Source of the DNA: Bacteroidales bacterium
GTDB taxonomy: Bacteria; Bacteroidota; Bacteroidia; Bacteroidales; SM23-62
Direction of reading: 5' to 3'
DNA: 34,502 nt
Assembly (NCBI GenBank): GCA_016783865.1
Contig: JADHVS010000027.1
Coordinates: 1-34,502, forward strand
Below the pieces are notes generated by a model that was given only the letters and a program-made list of their open reading frames with translations, was not told the origin of the DNA and made no database searches. Numbering within the stretch: position 1 is the first letter of the stretch; every line of letters starts with the position of its first letter. This document shows positions 130 to 20,149 of the stretch, piece by piece. A program made the translations under genes and the position numbers.

Positions 130-194
130 CTAGTTACTGGTTACCAGGTAATCTGCTATCGAAGGACACCCAGCAACCAGTACCTGGTAACTAG
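130..194. repeat. Imperfect inverted repeat after the transposase end
   Basis: The left part (130-150) and right part (175-194) hold several mutually complementary pieces: ctagtta/taactag, actggtt/aaccagt and ttaccaggta (141-150)/tacctggtaa (181-190). The pieces can pair in more than one register, so the patch looks like shuffled copies of a short CTGGTAAC-type unit, not one clean hairpin. It may be the transposon's terminal repeat or an intergenic repeat unrelated to it. Confidence 0.6.
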
Positions 195-195
195 C

Positions 196-209
196 CATTC
201 AGATAGTAT
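196..209. repeat. 14-bp sequence repeated upstream of glnN
   Basis: The 14-mer cattcagatagtat occurs here and again, exactly and in the same orientation, at 20136-20149. In both places it directly follows a patch rich in CTGG/CCTGGT-like words and precedes a gene by 25-90 bp. This suggests a dispersed intergenic repeat family with a fixed end. Confidence 0.6.
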
Positions 210-6378: not shown

Positions 6379-7407
6379 ATGCATAGGAATATGGTGATTA
6401 CTTTTTTTATAACAGTCTTTATCATTTGCTCCTGCTTCTTAAATATAGATCCGAGAATGACGACGGTTATATATGTGACAGATTTATATCACCCCTTTGC
6501 GGATCCTGATGATCATTTCGACTTAGCAGCACTTTATGCCTTAAAACAAATTGACATTAAATCTATAATAATTGATTATGCAAAACCACATAAAACGCCA
6601 GGCAGAGTTCCAATTGAACAATTAAACTTCATTACAGGCAGAAAAATCCCTGTTTATCCGGGTCTGAAAGAAAAACTGACATCACCCGATGATACAGGAG
6701 AAAGCCAACCCAATTCTCAGGAAGGATGCGATGCTATTTTAAATTGTTTAGAAAAATCGGATAATAAAGTAACAATAATTTCGGTCGGAAGTCTTAGGGA
6801 TATTGCTGCGGCATACAACAGAAACGCCATTCTATTTGAGAATAAAGTTGACAAATTGATAATCTTTATAGGGGAATCGAGCAAGCAGGACTTTTTTGAA
6901 TATAATGTCAGGCTTGACAAGAACGCATTTATTAAGGTAATGAATAATATTCCTAATATATGGTGGATACCCTGTTTTGATGGAGGATCATGGCAGAATA
7001 ATGGTAATGCTTCTTTCTGGAGTGAACATCGTTCTGTTTTATTGAAAGGTGCTTCCGATCCAATTATTAACTATTTCCTATATGCTTTTACAAAATCTAC
7101 CGATTCTATAAACTATATCCCCCATTTATATTTTCCTGTGAATACTGAAGATTTACAATCACATATACTTGATTCTTCTATACCTTTGAGAAATTTATGG
7201 TGCAGTTCTGTTTTTCCCTATTTTGTTGAGAAGGATAAATCTAATTTCCCTTTTACTTTTGAACAAGTTAGTGTAAGTGTCGATAGTAATGCTGTATTGC
7301 AATATACAGATACTGGCAATAAAGTAATGCGATTTACAATTACAGATAAAGTAAATTACAGCAAGAAAATGACCGCAATTTTTAATAAAAAAATAAGACA
7401 ATTGTAA
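6379..7407 (+). CDS. Nucleoside hydrolase-like lipoprotein
   Basis: A 342-residue protein. The leader MHRNMVITFFITVFIICSC suggests a lipoprotein (Cys19). The remainder resembles the inosine/uridine-preferring nucleoside hydrolase fold: TVIYVTD then D42-P-D44-D45-H-F-D48 at the position of the family's DxDPGxDD calcium-binding motif, VTIISVGSLRDIAAA in place of the usual V-L-GPLTN-A segment, and VDKLIIFIGESS at the usual MGG position. The altered motifs make the substrate uncertain, and it may be a glycosidase-like relative, not a true nucleoside hydrolase. Codon use is markedly A/T-rich (many aat, ata, tta) compared with the preceding operon, suggesting separate ancestry. Its nearest upstream neighbour is a truncated gene. 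Confidence 0.65.
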   Translation: MHRNMVITFFITVFIICSCFLNIDPRMTTVIYVTDLYHPFADPDDHFDLAALYALKQIDIKSIIIDYAKPHKTPGRVPIEQLNFITGRKIPVYPGLKEKLTSPDDTGESQPNSQEGCDAILNCLEKSDNKVTIISVGSLRDIAAAYNRNAILFENKVDKLIIFIGESSKQDFFEYNVRLDKNAFIKVMNNIPNIWWIPCFDGGSWQNNGNASFWSEHRSVLLKGASDPIINYFLYAFTKSTDSINYIPHLYFPVNTEDLQSHILDSSIPLRNLWCSSVFPYFVEKDKSNFPFTFEQVSVSVDSNAVLQYTDTGNKVMRFTITDKVNYSKKMTAIFNKKIRQL

Positions 7408-7789
7408 AAATAATCATACAATGAAAAGGCACATACCTTCAACATTGGCTATGCGTAATGCGGGATTTTGTGCTAAATTGAAAGTAAATGAATATTAACA
7501 AATAAATCAGTATCCTATAAAACTTAACAGAAGTCTATAAATAATTATTTCTTAAGTTTTGGCAATCTCGAATTAATAAATAACTTTCAACAATGATCCC
7601 AATCATTAATTTGTTATTCTTGAATCCTAGGAGCGCATTGCCTGTACCTTGCAGCGGGGTTAGCGAGCGCAATTAAAAACAAATATAAAGGATCGATGAT
7701 TGGCTTCGCCGAACTCAGGAGCTCGTTTCCTCGCCCCGAGTAATCGGGGCGAGGAAAGTAAATCAGCAAGGATAAATTACTGATCAAGC
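7408..7789. other. Gene-free region with repeat-like patches
   Basis: About 380 bases with no convincing gene. The first part (7421-7498) holds a 25-codon open frame starting ATG 7421 and containing LAMRNAGFCAKLKVNEY. From loose memory this resembles short peptides predicted from intergenic repeats in other Bacteroidota genomes; I cannot verify this. The middle is A+T-rich. From about 7625 to 7757 the composition changes abruptly to G+C-rich with reiterated GAGCGCA/GCGAGCGCA words, ending in the strong hairpin at 7726-7757. It is best read as one or more decayed dispersed repeats or an insertion scar. Confidence 0.45.
7726..7757. repeat. 14-bp perfect stem with GTAA loop
   Basis: The arms tttcctcgccccga (7726-7739) and tcggggcgaggaaa (7744-7757) are perfectly complementary around the tetraloop GTAA, which as RNA is a GNRA loop. 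The stem is G+C-rich in an A+T-rich setting. Neither strand has a U-tract after it, so a simple rho-independent terminator is unlikely. A REP-like palindrome, insertion scar or RNA-processing hairpin fits better. It lies 33 bp upstream of the first possible start of the DUF2079 gene. Confidence 0.75.
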
Positions 7790-7880
7790 ATGAAAATATC
7801 CGACTATATACAGATTCATCGGCCTTCCATATCTGATTTGAAGAATTTTATTCCAAATTATAAGACCGTTTTTTTTTTTG
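7790..7880 (+). other. Probable 5' end of the DUF2079 gene, split by a T11 tract
   Basis: ATG 7790 opens a frame of 27 codons (MKISDYIQIHRPSISDL...YKTV) that runs into eleven consecutive T residues (7869-7879) and then leaves the frame of the downstream membrane protein. Removing one T (or adding two) joins the frames, giving ...YKTVFFLIIILFSGLYLAQ, a short cytosolic N-terminus plus a complete first membrane helix. The T11 run is therefore a sequencing or assembly error, a fixed frameshift, or a slippage-prone ON/OFF switch. Confidence 0.65.
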
Positions 7881-9314
7881 ATAATCATTCTGTTTTCAGG
7901 ATTGTATCTCGCCCAGGTTATTTCTAATCATTACTTCTTCAGGACCTATGCGTTTGATTATGCACTGCATAATAATGCCATCTGGGATTTTTCTCATTTC
8001 AGGGTCAATCCTAATCCAATTATGACTCCTCCGCTCAAGACATTTTTCCAGGTCCATCTTTCATATACTCTTATTTTTATTCTGCCGCTGTACTGGTTAC
8101 TTAATCCTATAGCAGGAACTTACACCCTTCTTATTATTGAGGTTCTGTTTATCATATTAGGCGGGATTGGTTGTTATAAGTTTATTAAATATTTAACCAA
8201 TGACTACAAACTCGCACTTCTTGCACTGTTCCATTACTTTATCCTGCAAGGTCATTTTGCCTCTCTGTCATCAGATTATAATGATGCAATCATGGGATCT
8301 GCAATCATAACCTGGTTCATCTATTTTTTCATCAAAAATAAATTTGTCCTGTCCAGTTTGGCATTCCTGTTTGTCCTTCTTTCAAAGGAAAATATGTCTG
8401 TATGGCTTGTATTTGTAACAGTTGTATTAATTATATGGCAATTTAAAAACCGAAAAGCACGTTATTTCGCAGGTATTTATATTGTGATAGCCATAGCCTA
8501 CTTCATAATCGCTATGACTGTCATGATCCCCTATTATGAAGATCCTGCCTTCCCTTATTGGGGATTCCATTATAGATCTTTTGGTGAAACCCCAAAGGAG
8601 GTGTTTAAATATTTTTTAGCTCATCCGATTGAGGTCTTTTTTAAACTATTTTATAATCATAACGGACATAAACTTGGGAATTGGGTAAAAGCCGAATATT
8701 ATTACTATTTCCTCATTTGTGGTGGTTGGTTATTATTCAGGCGCCCTGTTATCCTGCTGGCAATACTGCCTATGCTGGCACAAAAAATGTTAATGGATTA
8801 TCCATCCAGATGGAGCCTGGGTGCCTATCATTCAGTTGAAATTGAATCCATCTATACTCTTTCTGTTTTCTATGCTTTATCCAAAATTAAGAACCTGGAA
8901 TCCAAATATATAATTGGATTGGTAATTACAATATTATGCACTCATGCCACTATTTACGGCACAGGTGCCGAACGTAAATACTGGCATCATGAAATAAAAG
9001 AAAATGTGTTCAGCCCTAAAATGTACAGGTCTGATCTCAATATTAAAGAAATTAGAAATGCATTGAAAATGGTTCCGGACGATGCAGGTGTTTGTGCTAC
9101 AAATACTATTACGCCGCATCTGGCTTACAGGTCAAAAATCTATGTTTTCCCGGAGATACGTGATGCTGAATACATTGTACTGTTAGATGACGGGAATCCA
9201 TATCCGCTTAAAATGGATCGGTTCGAAGAATTAAAGACGGATTATCTTGACAGCCATGAATGGGAAACTATTTACAATAAATATCAGTTAACCATTTTTA
9301 GGAAAATACCCTGA
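7878..9314 (+). CDS. DUF2079-family polytopic membrane protein
   Basis: As sequenced, the open frame begins at TTG 7878 inside the T11 tract and gives 478 residues. The protein has about ten hydrophobic helices, and the loop after helix 1 reads TYAFDYALHNNAIWDFS, the DUF2079-type equivalent of the aspartate-bearing first loop of GT-C glycosyltransferase-like proteins. HPIEVFFKLFYNHNGHKLG and YPSRWSLGAYHSVEI are further family-like loops. The C-terminal about 90 residues are soluble, with VPDDAGVCATNTITPHLAYR. DUF2079 proteins are thought to be sugar-transfer membrane enzymes, but function is unproven. The likely true start is ATG 7790 with the T-run one base shorter, giving about 507 residues. 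No glycan-synthesis genes flank it. Confidence 0.75.
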   Translation: MIIILFSGLYLAQVISNHYFFRTYAFDYALHNNAIWDFSHFRVNPNPIMTPPLKTFFQVHLSYTLIFILPLYWLLNPIAGTYTLLIIEVLFIILGGIGCYKFIKYLTNDYKLALLALFHYFILQGHFASLSSDYNDAIMGSAIITWFIYFFIKNKFVLSSLAFLFVLLSKENMSVWLVFVTVVLIIWQFKNRKARYFAGIYIVIAIAYFIIAMTVMIPYYEDPAFPYWGFHYRSFGETPKEVFKYFLAHPIEVFFKLFYNHNGHKLGNWVKAEYYYYFLICGGWLLFRRPVILLAILPMLAQKMLMDYPSRWSLGAYHSVEIESIYTLSVFYALSKIKNLESKYIIGLVITILCTHATIYGTGAERKYWHHEIKENVFSPKMYRSDLNIKEIRNALKMVPDDAGVCATNTITPHLAYRSKIYVFPEIRDAEYIVLLDDGNPYPLKMDRFEELKTDYLDSHEWETIYNKYQLTIFRKIP

Positions 9315-9782: not shown

Positions 9783-10145
9783 TTGCGAAGCCTGATTATC
9801 ACTACCACTTTTCTTGCCGTACTCGCCTGTATGTTATGGTCAACCGCCTTTGTCGGGATCCGGTTCACCATCAACGAACCGGCCTATTATGTATCGCTCG
9901 GGTGGTTGAGTTTTATGTCGGCGGTTGCCTTCAGTATCTGGTTCATCCTGCTGAAAAGGCCCGGTGTCAAGGTCTCGGAACTGAATATATGGAAATTCCT
10001 GATACCGGTCTTCGGTGCCTTGCTTAGCTGGTTGATCCTGCCGGATGAATCTCCTGTCATGGTACAGATTGTGGGGATGGTGTTTATAGTACTCTCCCTG
10101 ATCGTCCTGAATATGAAATTCCCCGGCAAGAAAAGATCCATTTGA
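9783..10145 (+). pseudogene. EamA/DMT-family permease with internal deletion
   Basis: The frame encodes 120 residues, whereas EamA drug/metabolite transporters have about 290-300 and ten helices. The first segment (FLAVLACMLWSTAFVGIR) is a typical EamA helix 1. The text then jumps to sequence typical of the second EamA repeat: EPAYYVSLGWLSFMSAVAFS, ISVW-like IWFILLKR, KFLIPVFGALLSWLILPDE and VQIVGMVFIVLSLIVLN. The middle five to six helices are absent although the frame stays open, so this looks like an in-frame internal deletion joined near residue 32. Only a TTG (9783) is available as start, or ATG 9831 inside helix 1, which further suggests decay. It ends 11 bp from the convergent receiver-domain gene. 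A functional four- to five-helix small transporter is possible but less likely. Confidence 0.65.
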
Positions 10146-10730: not shown

Positions 10731-13103
10731 ATGTTTCGAAACTACCTGGTCATCACCCTGAGAAACTTCAAAAGTAACCTGCTGTATGTACTGATTAATG
10801 TTTTAGGTCTTGGGTTGGCCCTGGCTGTCTGTATCGTAGCCTATATCAGCAATAAATATGATGCTGATTTTGACACCTTTCATGAGCATGCCAAACAGAT
10901 TTACAGGATAGAAGTTACCCGGCAGATCGAGGATAGGTCTCAGGCCTATGGTATCAGCCCGGTCTCACTGGCCCCTCTGGTAAAGGAAAATATTGGCGGC
11001 ATACAGGATGTGGTCAGGGTGGTTACAAGTTATCTTCCAGTAAAACTCGGTGAAAATGTTTTTAATAAGGGAATTGCCTACTGTGATTCGGCGTTTTTTA
11101 AGATGTTTACCCTGGACCTGGTATCAGGGACGAGTGAGTCATTCGGGGATATGAACTCTATCATTATCAGCGATGAGATGGGGGAGATCTATTTTGGCAA
11201 TGAAGATCCGGTGGGTGAAATCATATCTTTAGTTACTAATAATGAAGAGAGAACCTACCTGGTGGCAGGTGTATTCAGGAAGTTCCCTCTCAATTCAAGT
11301 TTCACATTCGATGCACTCCTGTATATCGATAATTACTTTGAGATACACCAGGTGGATGAACATGACTGGCAAACAGCCATTGCAGGAACATTTCTGCTTG
11401 TACCCGACCGGTCGCAGATTCCGGTTATTGAAGAATTACTGCAGGAATACATTACTATCCAGAATGAGGCGCAGGAGCAGTTCAGGATTGAACGTTATTA
11501 CCTGGCCCCCTTTTCAGATATGGCCCACCGCGGGGGGGATCTCTGGTCGCACTGGTTCAGGCACAGTTTCCATCCGGCAGCGGTTACAGCACCTCCTTTG
11601 ATGGCCATTTTTATCTTGTTGCTGGCCTGTTTCAACTTCATGAATAATGCCATTGCCTTTTCCAGTAAAAGGTTAAAGGAGATCGGTGTCAGGAAAGTGG
11701 TTGGAGGCAATCGGAGGCAGATCATCTGGCAGTTTATGGGAGAGAATATGGTGTTAAGCCTTTTAGCAGTTGTGATTGGTTTGATAATTGGAGAATACCT
11801 GGTCGAAATTTACTCCAGGATGTGGATTTACATGGACGTTTCATTAAGTTTTAAATCCAATCCGGAGCTATTGATTTTCGTTATCCTGTTGTTTCTGATT
11901 GCCTCCCTGCTGGCCGGTGCATATCCATCTTTTTATATCAGCCGGTTCAATCCTGTGTTTATATTCCAGGATAAATTAAGGATTGGCGGCAGGAATATAC
12001 TGTCAAAAATCTTGTTAACACTCCAATTCATAATTTCAGCGAATGCACTTATTTCAGGTGTCATCTTTACGGAGAATGCCCGTTTTCAGGATAATCTTTA
12101 CCTGGGATATGACAAAGACAATATCATTGGTGTTCCGGTCAATGACCCGTCCTATTTTATTGCTTTCAGGGACGCTATAAAGGCCAATCCCAAAATTGAA
12201 AGCGTCGGCGAATCGGAAGAACATATCGGGCGGTCGAACTTTTCGAGACCGATTGATTACAAGGGGATCAGGAGAAACATCCGGGCCCTGGATATCGGAT
12301 ACGGATACTTTAACACGATGGGTTTGAAATTGACAGACGGACGGGAATTTCCGGCCGAACTCAAGTCTTCAGATATTGAAAACTCTGTTATTGTCAGCAA
12401 GGCTTTTGTTGAAGAATTCGGAATGGAAACGGTTGTCGGAGAGCGGATTATGATGGGAGACACGATGCCCTTATACATTGTCGGCGTGGTCGAAGACCTC
12501 TACCTGTATGGTTTCTGGTCAAAAAAGGATCCGATGTTGTTTCGCAGGGGTGTGGATGAAAGGATGAGGACACTGGCTGTCAGGGGTGCACCCGAAAACC
12601 TGGGTGAAATAAACGAATACCTGGAAAAAACCTGGAAAGAGATTATTCCAAATCAGCCCTACGAAGGATTCTTCCAGGATGACTTGATGGATGAGGCCCG
12701 TGATGTAAACAGGAATATTAAAAACATCAACATTTTCCTGGCCTTTCTGGCGATTATCATATCTGCCATCGGACTCTACACGCTTGTTTCATTAAGTATA
12801 ATTCGCCGCACAAAAGAAATAGGCATCCGCAAAGTGAATGGTGCCCCGATTTTCAGAATTGCCGGAATTATCAGCAGGGAGTACATGATCATACTGGCTA
12901 TTGCCTGTATTTTAGGAAGTGTTTCCGGTTATTGGGTCTCTGTCATGCTCATGGATAGTATATGGGATGCCTTTACCGATATCAGGCCATTTGTGTATAT
13001 CTTTTCCAATGCATTGATCCTGGTTGTGGCTATTGCTTCAATCGGCTGGAAAGTTAACCAGGCAGCCAGGAGAAATCCTGTTGATTCCTTGCGTTATGAA
13101 TAG
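10731..13103 (+). CDS. FtsX/MacB-type ABC transporter permease
   Basis: A 790-residue inner-membrane permease with the duplicated layout common in Bacteroidota: helix 1 near residues 18-42 (LLYVLINVLGLGLALAV), a periplasmic MacB_PCD-like domain, a first FtsX domain (about 285-410, with RLKEIGVRKVVGGNRRQIIWQF), another helix and periplasmic domain, and a second FtsX domain (about 670-785, with RRTKEIGIRKVNGAPIFRI). The repeated KEIG-RKV-G motifs are the coupling segments that contact the ATPase. No ABC ATPase or membrane-fusion gene lies next to it. Relatives export peptides or lipids or act in mechanotransmission; the substrate is unknown. It faces the POT transporter gene tail to tail with 6 bp between stops. 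Confidence 0.92.
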   Translation: MFRNYLVITLRNFKSNLLYVLINVLGLGLALAVCIVAYISNKYDADFDTFHEHAKQIYRIEVTRQIEDRSQAYGISPVSLAPLVKENIGGIQDVVRVVTSYLPVKLGENVFNKGIAYCDSAFFKMFTLDLVSGTSESFGDMNSIIISDEMGEIYFGNEDPVGEIISLVTNNEERTYLVAGVFRKFPLNSSFTFDALLYIDNYFEIHQVDEHDWQTAIAGTFLLVPDRSQIPVIEELLQEYITIQNEAQEQFRIERYYLAPFSDMAHRGGDLWSHWFRHSFHPAAVTAPPLMAIFILLLACFNFMNNAIAFSSKRLKEIGVRKVVGGNRRQIIWQFMGENMVLSLLAVVIGLIIGEYLVEIYSRMWIYMDVSLSFKSNPELLIFVILLFLIASLLAGAYPSFYISRFNPVFIFQDKLRIGGRNILSKILLTLQFIISANALISGVIFTENARFQDNLYLGYDKDNIIGVPVNDPSYFIAFRDAIKANPKIESVGESEEHIGRSNFSRPIDYKGIRRNIRALDIGYGYFNTMGLKLTDGREFPAELKSSDIENSVIVSKAFVEEFGMETVVGERIMMGDTMPLYIVGVVEDLYLYGFWSKKDPMLFRRGVDERMRTLAVRGAPENLGEINEYLEKTWKEIIPNQPYEGFFQDDLMDEARDVNRNIKNINIFLAFLAIIISAIGLYTLVSLSIIRRTKEIGIRKVNGAPIFRIAGIISREYMIILAIACILGSVSGYWVSVMLMDSIWDAFTDIRPFVYIFSNALILVVAIASIGWKVNQAARRNPVDSLRYE

Positions 13104-17961: not shown

Positions 17962-18622
<661 letters not shown>

Positions 18623-20073: not shown

Positions 20074-20149
20074 TATCTTTACACTTGCGTAGTTCGATTT
20101 GCTGGTTGCCTCGAAACTGGCACCTCGTACCTCGTCATTCAGATAGTAT
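20074..20149. repeat. Possible glnN promoter and repeat patch
   Basis: TATCTTTA at 20074-20081 differs from the TAnnTTTG -7 consensus only in the last base and may drive glnN, giving a leader of about 85 bases. The following bases hold reiterated words (GGTTGCCTCG, GGCACCTCG, GTACCTCG) and then the 14-mer at 20136-20149 shared with 196-209. The repeat patch would lie inside the leader RNA. Confidence 0.4.

What the first reader, a model, noticed from the sequence alone, without database searches (positions are those of the whole stretch)
7790..7900. T11 homopolymer splits the start of a DUF2079 membrane protein: possible phase-variable switch
An in-frame ATG at 7790 with a plausible 27-residue cytosolic N-terminus enters eleven Ts and loses frame. 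Shortening the run by one T fuses it seamlessly to a complete first membrane helix. Long homopolymers at the 5' end of genes for surface-glycan enzymes are a known cause of ON/OFF phase variation by slipped-strand mispairing. As sequenced the gene would be OFF, or would start at a TTG inside the tract.
Basis: partly seen in the sequence, partly recalled or inferred. Interest (0 to 1): 0.7.

Follow-up and report, generated by a model that had tools for sequence, protein, structure and literature searches.

The report
Membrane sugar-transferase gene split by T-run
In this uncultured Bacteroidales-like bacterium, a run of eleven Ts breaks the first membrane helix of a likely sugar-transferase gene; the break is real in the sequence and could flicker or leak, but nothing available shows that it works as a switch.

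Summary
T11 sits at 7869-7879; ATG 7790 reads into it and ends at TAA 7925-7927 after 45 codons, while the DUF2079 ORF (to 9314) continues in another frame. The true start is very probably upstream of the tract: 74 of 75 relatives with a held 5' end have a canonical in-frame start at least 10 codons upstream of the residue aligned to TTG 7878, and the window's N-terminus matches one relative (L040) above all of 1000 shuffles. A model of a relative puts TTG 7878 in mid helix 1 of a GT-C fold. The rest of the gene keeps 30 of 30 invariant columns. The switch is unproven: none of the 75 has T10 or more there, none of 17 long A/T runs in 7 family genomes visibly splits a gene, and no reads or same-species copy were reachable. 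'OFF' is doubtful too, since E. coli RNA polymerase drops bases on T8 (PMC6260861). Most likely this is an accidental, mutable, leaky homopolymer frameshift; phase variation or consensus error remain possible.

The parts
7790..7868 (+). N-terminal coding piece of the DUF2079 gene (ATG start, 26 codons plus one base before the tract)
   Evidence: First start after a stop in its frame; its translation matches the N-terminus of relative L040, score 45, 0 of 1000 shuffles; extension length within the range of relatives
7869..7879 (+). T11 homopolymer at the frame junction, inside the stretch that codes membrane helix 1
   Evidence: longest A/T run in the window
7790..7927 (+). Short ORF as sequenced: 45 codons and TAA, ending out of frame after the tract
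7878..9314 (+). DUF2079 (PF09852) ORF as called, 478 aa, from a TTG at the tract's end; GT-C-fold membrane protein by its relative
   Evidence: Pfam E 4.4e-32; 30 of 30 invariant columns kept; model and fold search of relative P0002
7726..7757 (+). GC-rich hairpin (14-bp stem, 4-nt loop) in the spacer upstream of ATG 7790; role unknown
   Evidence: minimum free energy -40.6 kcal/mol for 7690-7800, z -4.17

Best explanation
The DUF2079 gene starts at ATG 7790 and codes a GT-C-type, glycosyltransferase-like membrane protein. An ordinary run of T-rich codons in membrane helix 1 has changed length by slippage during replication, so the consensus is out of frame at T11. The rest of the gene is undamaged, so the break is recent or tolerated. 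RNA polymerase slippage on the T-run probably still gives a minority of in-frame messages, and replication slippage could restore the frame at times. This would be an accidental, leaky, mutable frameshift (a 'pseudo-pseudogene'), not an evolved switch. Shown: the tract, the frame break, the evidence for the upstream start, the intact remainder, the predicted fold of a relative. Inferred: that the eleventh T is real in the cell, and that slippage gives in-frame product.
For: Start upstream of the tract: alignment; 68 of 75 relatives with an in-frame ATG and 6 with only GTG or TTG, all 74 at least 10 codons upstream; N-terminal match to L040. Remainder undamaged: no stop in 478 codons, 30 of 30 invariant columns kept. 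A T-rich site by codon make-up: 11 of 75 relatives have T8 or more in the 40 codons from 10 before the aligned point, against 10.8 expected under synonymous randomisation. Slippage: E. coli RNA polymerase gave about 10% of the in-frame reporter signal on T8 by deletion, rising with T length (PMC6260861 section 19); C. rodentium tssM1 with A11 about 20% (PMC4256274 passages); genes with a frame break in A/T runs described as 'pseudo pseudogenes' (PMC1088944 Results and Discussion).
Against: Slippage was measured in other bacteria and other constructs; nothing is known for this lineage, and there are no transcript data. T9 or more is seen in 1 of 75 relatives against 3.8 expected and T10 or more in 0 against 2.2, so long runs may be selected against here; by that reading a run of 11 needs some explanation. 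The eleventh T could be a consensus error.
Confidence: 0.48

Rival explanations
1. Evolved phase variation: the tract is a contingency locus. Slipped-strand mispairing changes its length at a high, reversible rate; one in three lengths gives the full protein, so a clonal population is mixed for the glycan change that the enzyme makes.
For: Frame-changing tract at the 5' end of a gene for a likely GT-C-fold protein. A/T runs of 11 or more are rare in the nearest held family (17 in about 27.3 Mb), and the window's is the only one of these 18 runs that splits a gene. In N. meningitidis, candidate homopolymers of 8 or more were mostly variable in four or five of five deep-sequenced genomes (PMC5084427 passages).
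Against: T10 or more in 0 of 75 relatives. Of 17 long runs in 7 family genomes, 1 is in a long ORF and leaves it open, and where a run precedes an ORF that ORF has its own ATG after the run, so no repertoire is seen. A review says that mutable homopolymers without shown reversal should not be called phase variation (PMC11868660 passages). No glycan cluster by Pfam.
Confidence: 0.17
2. Consensus or assembly error: the cell carries a frame-keeping tract and the gene is ordinary.
For: Homopolymers are the classic place for indel errors (recalled); the rest of the gene is undamaged; no relative of 75 has so long a run; no whole genome is held for the window.
Against: The sequencing method is unknown. 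The protein cluster P0001 stands for 3 member sequences on 3 contigs with a 478-aa representative, which hints that other assemblies have the short form; but members could not be read, and short calls also arise from start choice (P0027, apparently the gene of L007).
Confidence: 0.2
3. Early pseudogene: the gene is no longer needed and T11 is its first lesion.
For: An EamA transporter remnant, apparently internally deleted, follows at 9783-10145; the upstream spacer holds repeat-like pieces.
Against: No second lesion in the 1,437-base ORF; 30 of 30 strictly conserved residues kept.
Confidence: 0.1
4. Real start downstream or non-canonical: TTG 7878, or an ATT upstream in the downstream frame, starts the protein and no frame break matters.
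For: The database protein P0001 has 478 aa, the length from TTG 7878; the stop-to-stop frame opens at 7842 with ATT at 7845; L030 also lacks a canonical upstream start.
Against: TTG 7878 aligns to residue 25 of P0002, inside modelled helix 16-43; best 19-residue hydropathy is 1.38 against 2.03 in P0002; 74 of 75 relatives have a canonical start at least 10 codons upstream; the N-terminal match to L040 needs ATG 7790.
Confidence: 0.05

Closest known systems
Frameshifted genes rescued by transcriptional slippage in A/T runs ('pseudo pseudogenes', PMC1088944; Blochmannia genes, PMC3017870; Citrobacter rodentium tssM1, PMC4256274)
   Same: Single frame break at a run of 9 or more A or T, otherwise undamaged gene, homologues in one ORF
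   Different: No transcript evidence here; window GC is about 43%, unlike the AT-rich endosymbionts; the tract lies near the start codon
Simple-sequence-repeat phase-variable genes (Neisseria, Campylobacter, Haemophilus; PMC5084427, PMC11868660)
   Same: Long mononucleotide tract near the 5' end, frame-changing, possibly a surface-glycan enzyme
   Different: No length polymorphism, rate or reversibility shown; no repertoire seen in the nearest family; in N. meningitidis G/C repeats were half of the strong candidates while 95% of the weak ones were A/T tracts (PMC5084427 passages)
PF09852 DUF2079 within the GT-C fold (ArnT, PglB, Pmt, OST in the PDB)
   Different: Sequence identity about 10%; donor, acceptor and glycan unknown

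Membership tests
SSR phase-variable (contingency) gene | Long simple-sequence tract in or before the gene whose length change alters frame or promoter | tested here: met
   T11 at 7869-7879 at the junction of two frames
SSR phase-variable (contingency) gene | Tract length differs within a population or between close strains | not testable with these tools
   No reads; no same-species copy found in genome contigs, viral contigs or the 393 order and 395 class genomes sampled
SSR phase-variable (contingency) gene | High rate and reversibility of switching | not testable with these tools
   Needs culture or deep reads
SSR phase-variable (contingency) gene | Supporting, not strictly defining: tract kept in related genes, or a repertoire of such loci in the lineage | tested here: inconclusive
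   Not found: 0 of 75 relatives with T10 or more; 0 of 17 long A/T runs in 7 family genomes visibly split a gene. But relatives are at most 42% identical in named genomes, so a species-level tract is not excluded
Transcriptional-slippage 'pseudo-pseudogene' | A/T run of 9 or more at the frame break and homologues encoded in a single ORF | tested here: met
Transcriptional-slippage 'pseudo-pseudogene' | Heterogeneous mRNA lengths at the run and full-length product | not testable with these tools
   Needs RNA or protein
Programmed slippage site | Run and split-ORF layout conserved among homologues | tested here: not met
   0 of 75 relatives have T10 or more there; 79 of 80 best matches have no stop inside, L077 has one
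PF09852 DUF2079 | Match above the curated cut-off | tested here: met
   112.2 bits against 28.2
GT-C glycosyltransferase fold | Fold match over most of the protein | tested here: met

The most novel reading that the evidence does not exclude
An uncultured environmental Bacteroidales-like bacterium, from a group known for invertible promoters, switches a GT-C glycosyltransferase by a poly-T tract inside membrane helix 1, with RNA polymerase slippage setting a leaky floor in the 'off' state, so that one tract gives both heritable switching and cell-to-cell noise.
Probability: 0.1. Interest if true: 0.6.

Novelty: new member of a known kind. Interest (0 to 1): 0.3.

Why it matters
If the tract is real and variable, it would be a mononucleotide switch of a glycan-type enzyme in a group whose phase variation, in the review passages that I saw (PMC11868660) and by recall, is described as DNA inversion. 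If it is a leaky frameshift, it is one more gene that annotation wrongly truncates: a start at TTG 7878 removes the N-terminus and about a third of helix 1. Either way it is a cheap test case, since raw reads of the source sample decide.

Tried and rejected
Own genome: none held.

A programmed -1 ribosomal frameshift on a U run was considered and rejected: a -1 step leads from the ATG frame into the third frame, not the DUF2079 frame (frame arithmetic).

P0006, P0033 and P0054 also lack an N-terminal extension of 5 residues or more. I did not count them as further broken genes, since their DNA was not seen and P0027, apparently the gene of L007, shows that gene callers can pick a late start. 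L030 has no canonical start codon in frame upstream; not followed.

Family A/T runs: my first sorting would not have told a run before a gene from a run that splits one, since the window's own tract sorts the same way; therefore looked for each ORF's own ATG after the run. Its ORFs are mechanical and were judged by eye.

Synteny: the nucleoside-hydrolase-like neighbour (6379-7407) gave no match at E 1e-20 in 7 family genomes; the permease (10731-13103) was found at 63, 53 and 53% in three of the 7, next to many weaker paralogues. Neither helped to date the DUF2079 gene. Rfam at gathering scores: no match. Sigma-70-type sites in 7300-8200 were 6 against 4.1 in shuffles, terminators 0; a Bacteroidetes-type promoter pattern TAnnTTTG (recalled) was absent from 7408-7880. 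PDB by sequence: nothing below E 0.09. Literature: DUF2079 gave 0 papers in the held library.

Full report
What is there. The window has T11 at 7869-7879. ATG 7790 is the first start after a stop in its frame; it reads 26 codons, enters the tract, passes through it in its own frame and ends at TAA 7925-7927 after 45 codons. The DUF2079 ORF (PF09852, 112 bits) runs from TTG 7878 to 9314 in another frame. T11 is the longest A/T run in the window. Composition alone gives such a run in 7 to 28 of 60 simulated windows, by Markov order, so its presence is not by itself surprising. In genomes of the nearest held family it is rarer: 17 distinct A/T runs of 11 or more in 7 genomes, about 27.3 Mb by the sizes. 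That family was chosen because G016 (locus L036, Bacteroides sp. SM23_62) has the best match, 77%, to the window's glutamine synthetase III among 25 genomes tried, 21 of which matched. The window's own genome is not held, and its taxonomy is inferred from this.

Is the start upstream of the tract? Very probably. In the alignment of 28 proteins, 26 of 27 relatives begin before the window's TTG (by eye; the exception is P0006). In A2, 44 of 47 relatives have an extension of 5 residues or more; P0006, P0033 and P0054 do not. At DNA level the best 80 of 111 loci were kept; 5 of the 80 are cut at the 5' end and were dropped. Of the other 75, 68 have an in-frame ATG, 6 only GTG or TTG, and L030 none; all 74 have a canonical start at least 10 codons upstream. 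The window's first 27 residues were compared with 156 N-terminal peptides of relatives (those under 20 residues, or without the anchor motif or a start, were dropped): the best, L040, scores 45 over 19 residues; the best of the same 156 peptides against each of 1000 shuffles of the window peptide never reached that (mean of maxima 29). The next peptides score 24, within noise, and the closest relatives (P0002-P0006) do not share this motif, so the N-terminus is variable in the family; L040 is only 32% identical overall. Extension length in the 74 loci, counted to the farthest start within 60 codons: median 16.5, range 10-56; the window's 29 lies within this, and 8 of 74 are 29 or longer.

Is the gene otherwise sound? 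Yes. Of 30 columns invariant in the other 27 rows of A1 all are kept; of 41 columns at 95% or more, one is changed. There is no further stop. The neighbourhood is less tidy: an apparently internally deleted EamA remnant follows at 9783-10145, and the 382-base spacer upstream holds a 73-base stretch 89% like intergenic DNA of a Persicobacter plasmid, a stretch of 69-88 bases that recurs at 80-82% in two family genomes, and a strong hairpin.

Is it a switch? Not shown. No relative of 75 has T10 or more in the -90 to +60 stretch; the longest T run is T9 in one. The site is T-rich by codon make-up: in the 40 codons from 10 before the aligned point, T8 or more is seen in 11 of 75 against 10.8 expected when synonymous codons are shuffled; T9 or more 1 against 3.8, T10 or more 0 against 2.2, a slight lack if anything. 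Of the 17 long A/T runs in the family genomes, one lies in a long ORF and leaves it open (L102), one in a 99-aa ORF of doubtful standing (L101), one (L090) in a TTG-begun extension before an evident ATG, and 14 outside ORFs of 80 codons or more or touching a start (L086). Where a run precedes an ORF within 100 bases, the ORF has its own ATG after the run in all but one of the rows; the exception is a TTG-begun frame opposite an ATG-begun ORF in L086. The window's tract is the only one of the 18 that sits where the ORF's first ATG is far off (142 bases) and an upstream ATG frame runs into the tract for 79 bases. There is thus no sign of a repertoire of contingency loci; equally, the window's tract stands out. 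The relatives are distant (at most 42% in named genomes), so a species-level switch is not excluded. A review of phase variation (PMC11868660, passages) asks for high rate and reversibility and sets aside mutable homopolymers without shown reversal.

Is it off? Probably not fully. E. coli RNA polymerase on T8 gave about 10% of the in-frame signal by deletion, with more rescue on longer T runs (PMC6260861, section 19 read). A11 in tssM1 gave about 20% frameshift product (PMC4256274, passages). Genes whose frame is broken in a run of 9 A/T were named pseudo pseudogenes, since a share of messages is whole (PMC1088944, Results and Discussion read), and the same is argued for eight Blochmannia genes (PMC3017870, passages). 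A -1 ribosomal shift would give the wrong frame here. All this is inference from other species.

Verdict. Observation confirmed; start upstream of the tract well supported; the phase switch is possible (0.17), an accidental leaky frameshift more likely (0.48), consensus error next (0.2). Raw reads would decide at once.

Noticed in passing
L087, L090, L093 (genomes G006, G016, G029): A T12 run lies 30-31 bases upstream of the ATG of the same gene (MIKK[IV]L[IV]ANRGE, a biotin-carboxylase-like start by recall) in 3 of 7 family genomes, and an A11/T11 run lies 35 bases upstream of MERIQFGTDGWR in L098 and L104 (G016, G029). Conserved long A/T runs at fixed distance from starts suggest promoter or leader elements.
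   Followed up: partly
window 18576-18621: Tandem heptamer AGTAGAC, 6.6 copies, 97% match. It runs over the stop codon (TAG 18592-18594) of the DUF3109 ORF and ends 18 bases before ATG 18640 of an M20 peptidase. Heptamer repeats near start codons are described for TAACTGA in Beggiatoaceae and a few Bacteroidetes (PMC4679880, passages); this unit differs.
   Followed up: partly
window 9783-10145: EamA transporter remnant of 120 codons; the start of such a protein appears joined to the end of one, so probably an internally deleted pseudogene.
   Followed up: partly
window 7440-7512: 73 bases 89% identical to intergenic DNA of Persicobacter psychrovividus plasmid pPP2, although that host belongs to another order (Cytophagales).
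   Followed up: partly
window 7620-7701; L110, L111, L112: Dispersed intergenic repeat, 80-82% alike at three places in two genomes of the nearest held family. In L112 it is followed by a different hairpin (CCTCGCAGC/GCTGCGAGG) from the window's.
   Followed up: partly
P0006: A 52%-identical metagenome relative also begins inside helix 1, with Met-Leu-Phe-Phe-Phe.
   Followed up: no
L030: DUF2079 gene without any ATG, GTG or TTG in frame upstream of helix 1, possibly another broken 5' end without a long homopolymer.
   Followed up: no
window 175-209 and 20115-20149: A 35-base repeat pair outside the main ORFs, 80% identical.
   Followed up: no
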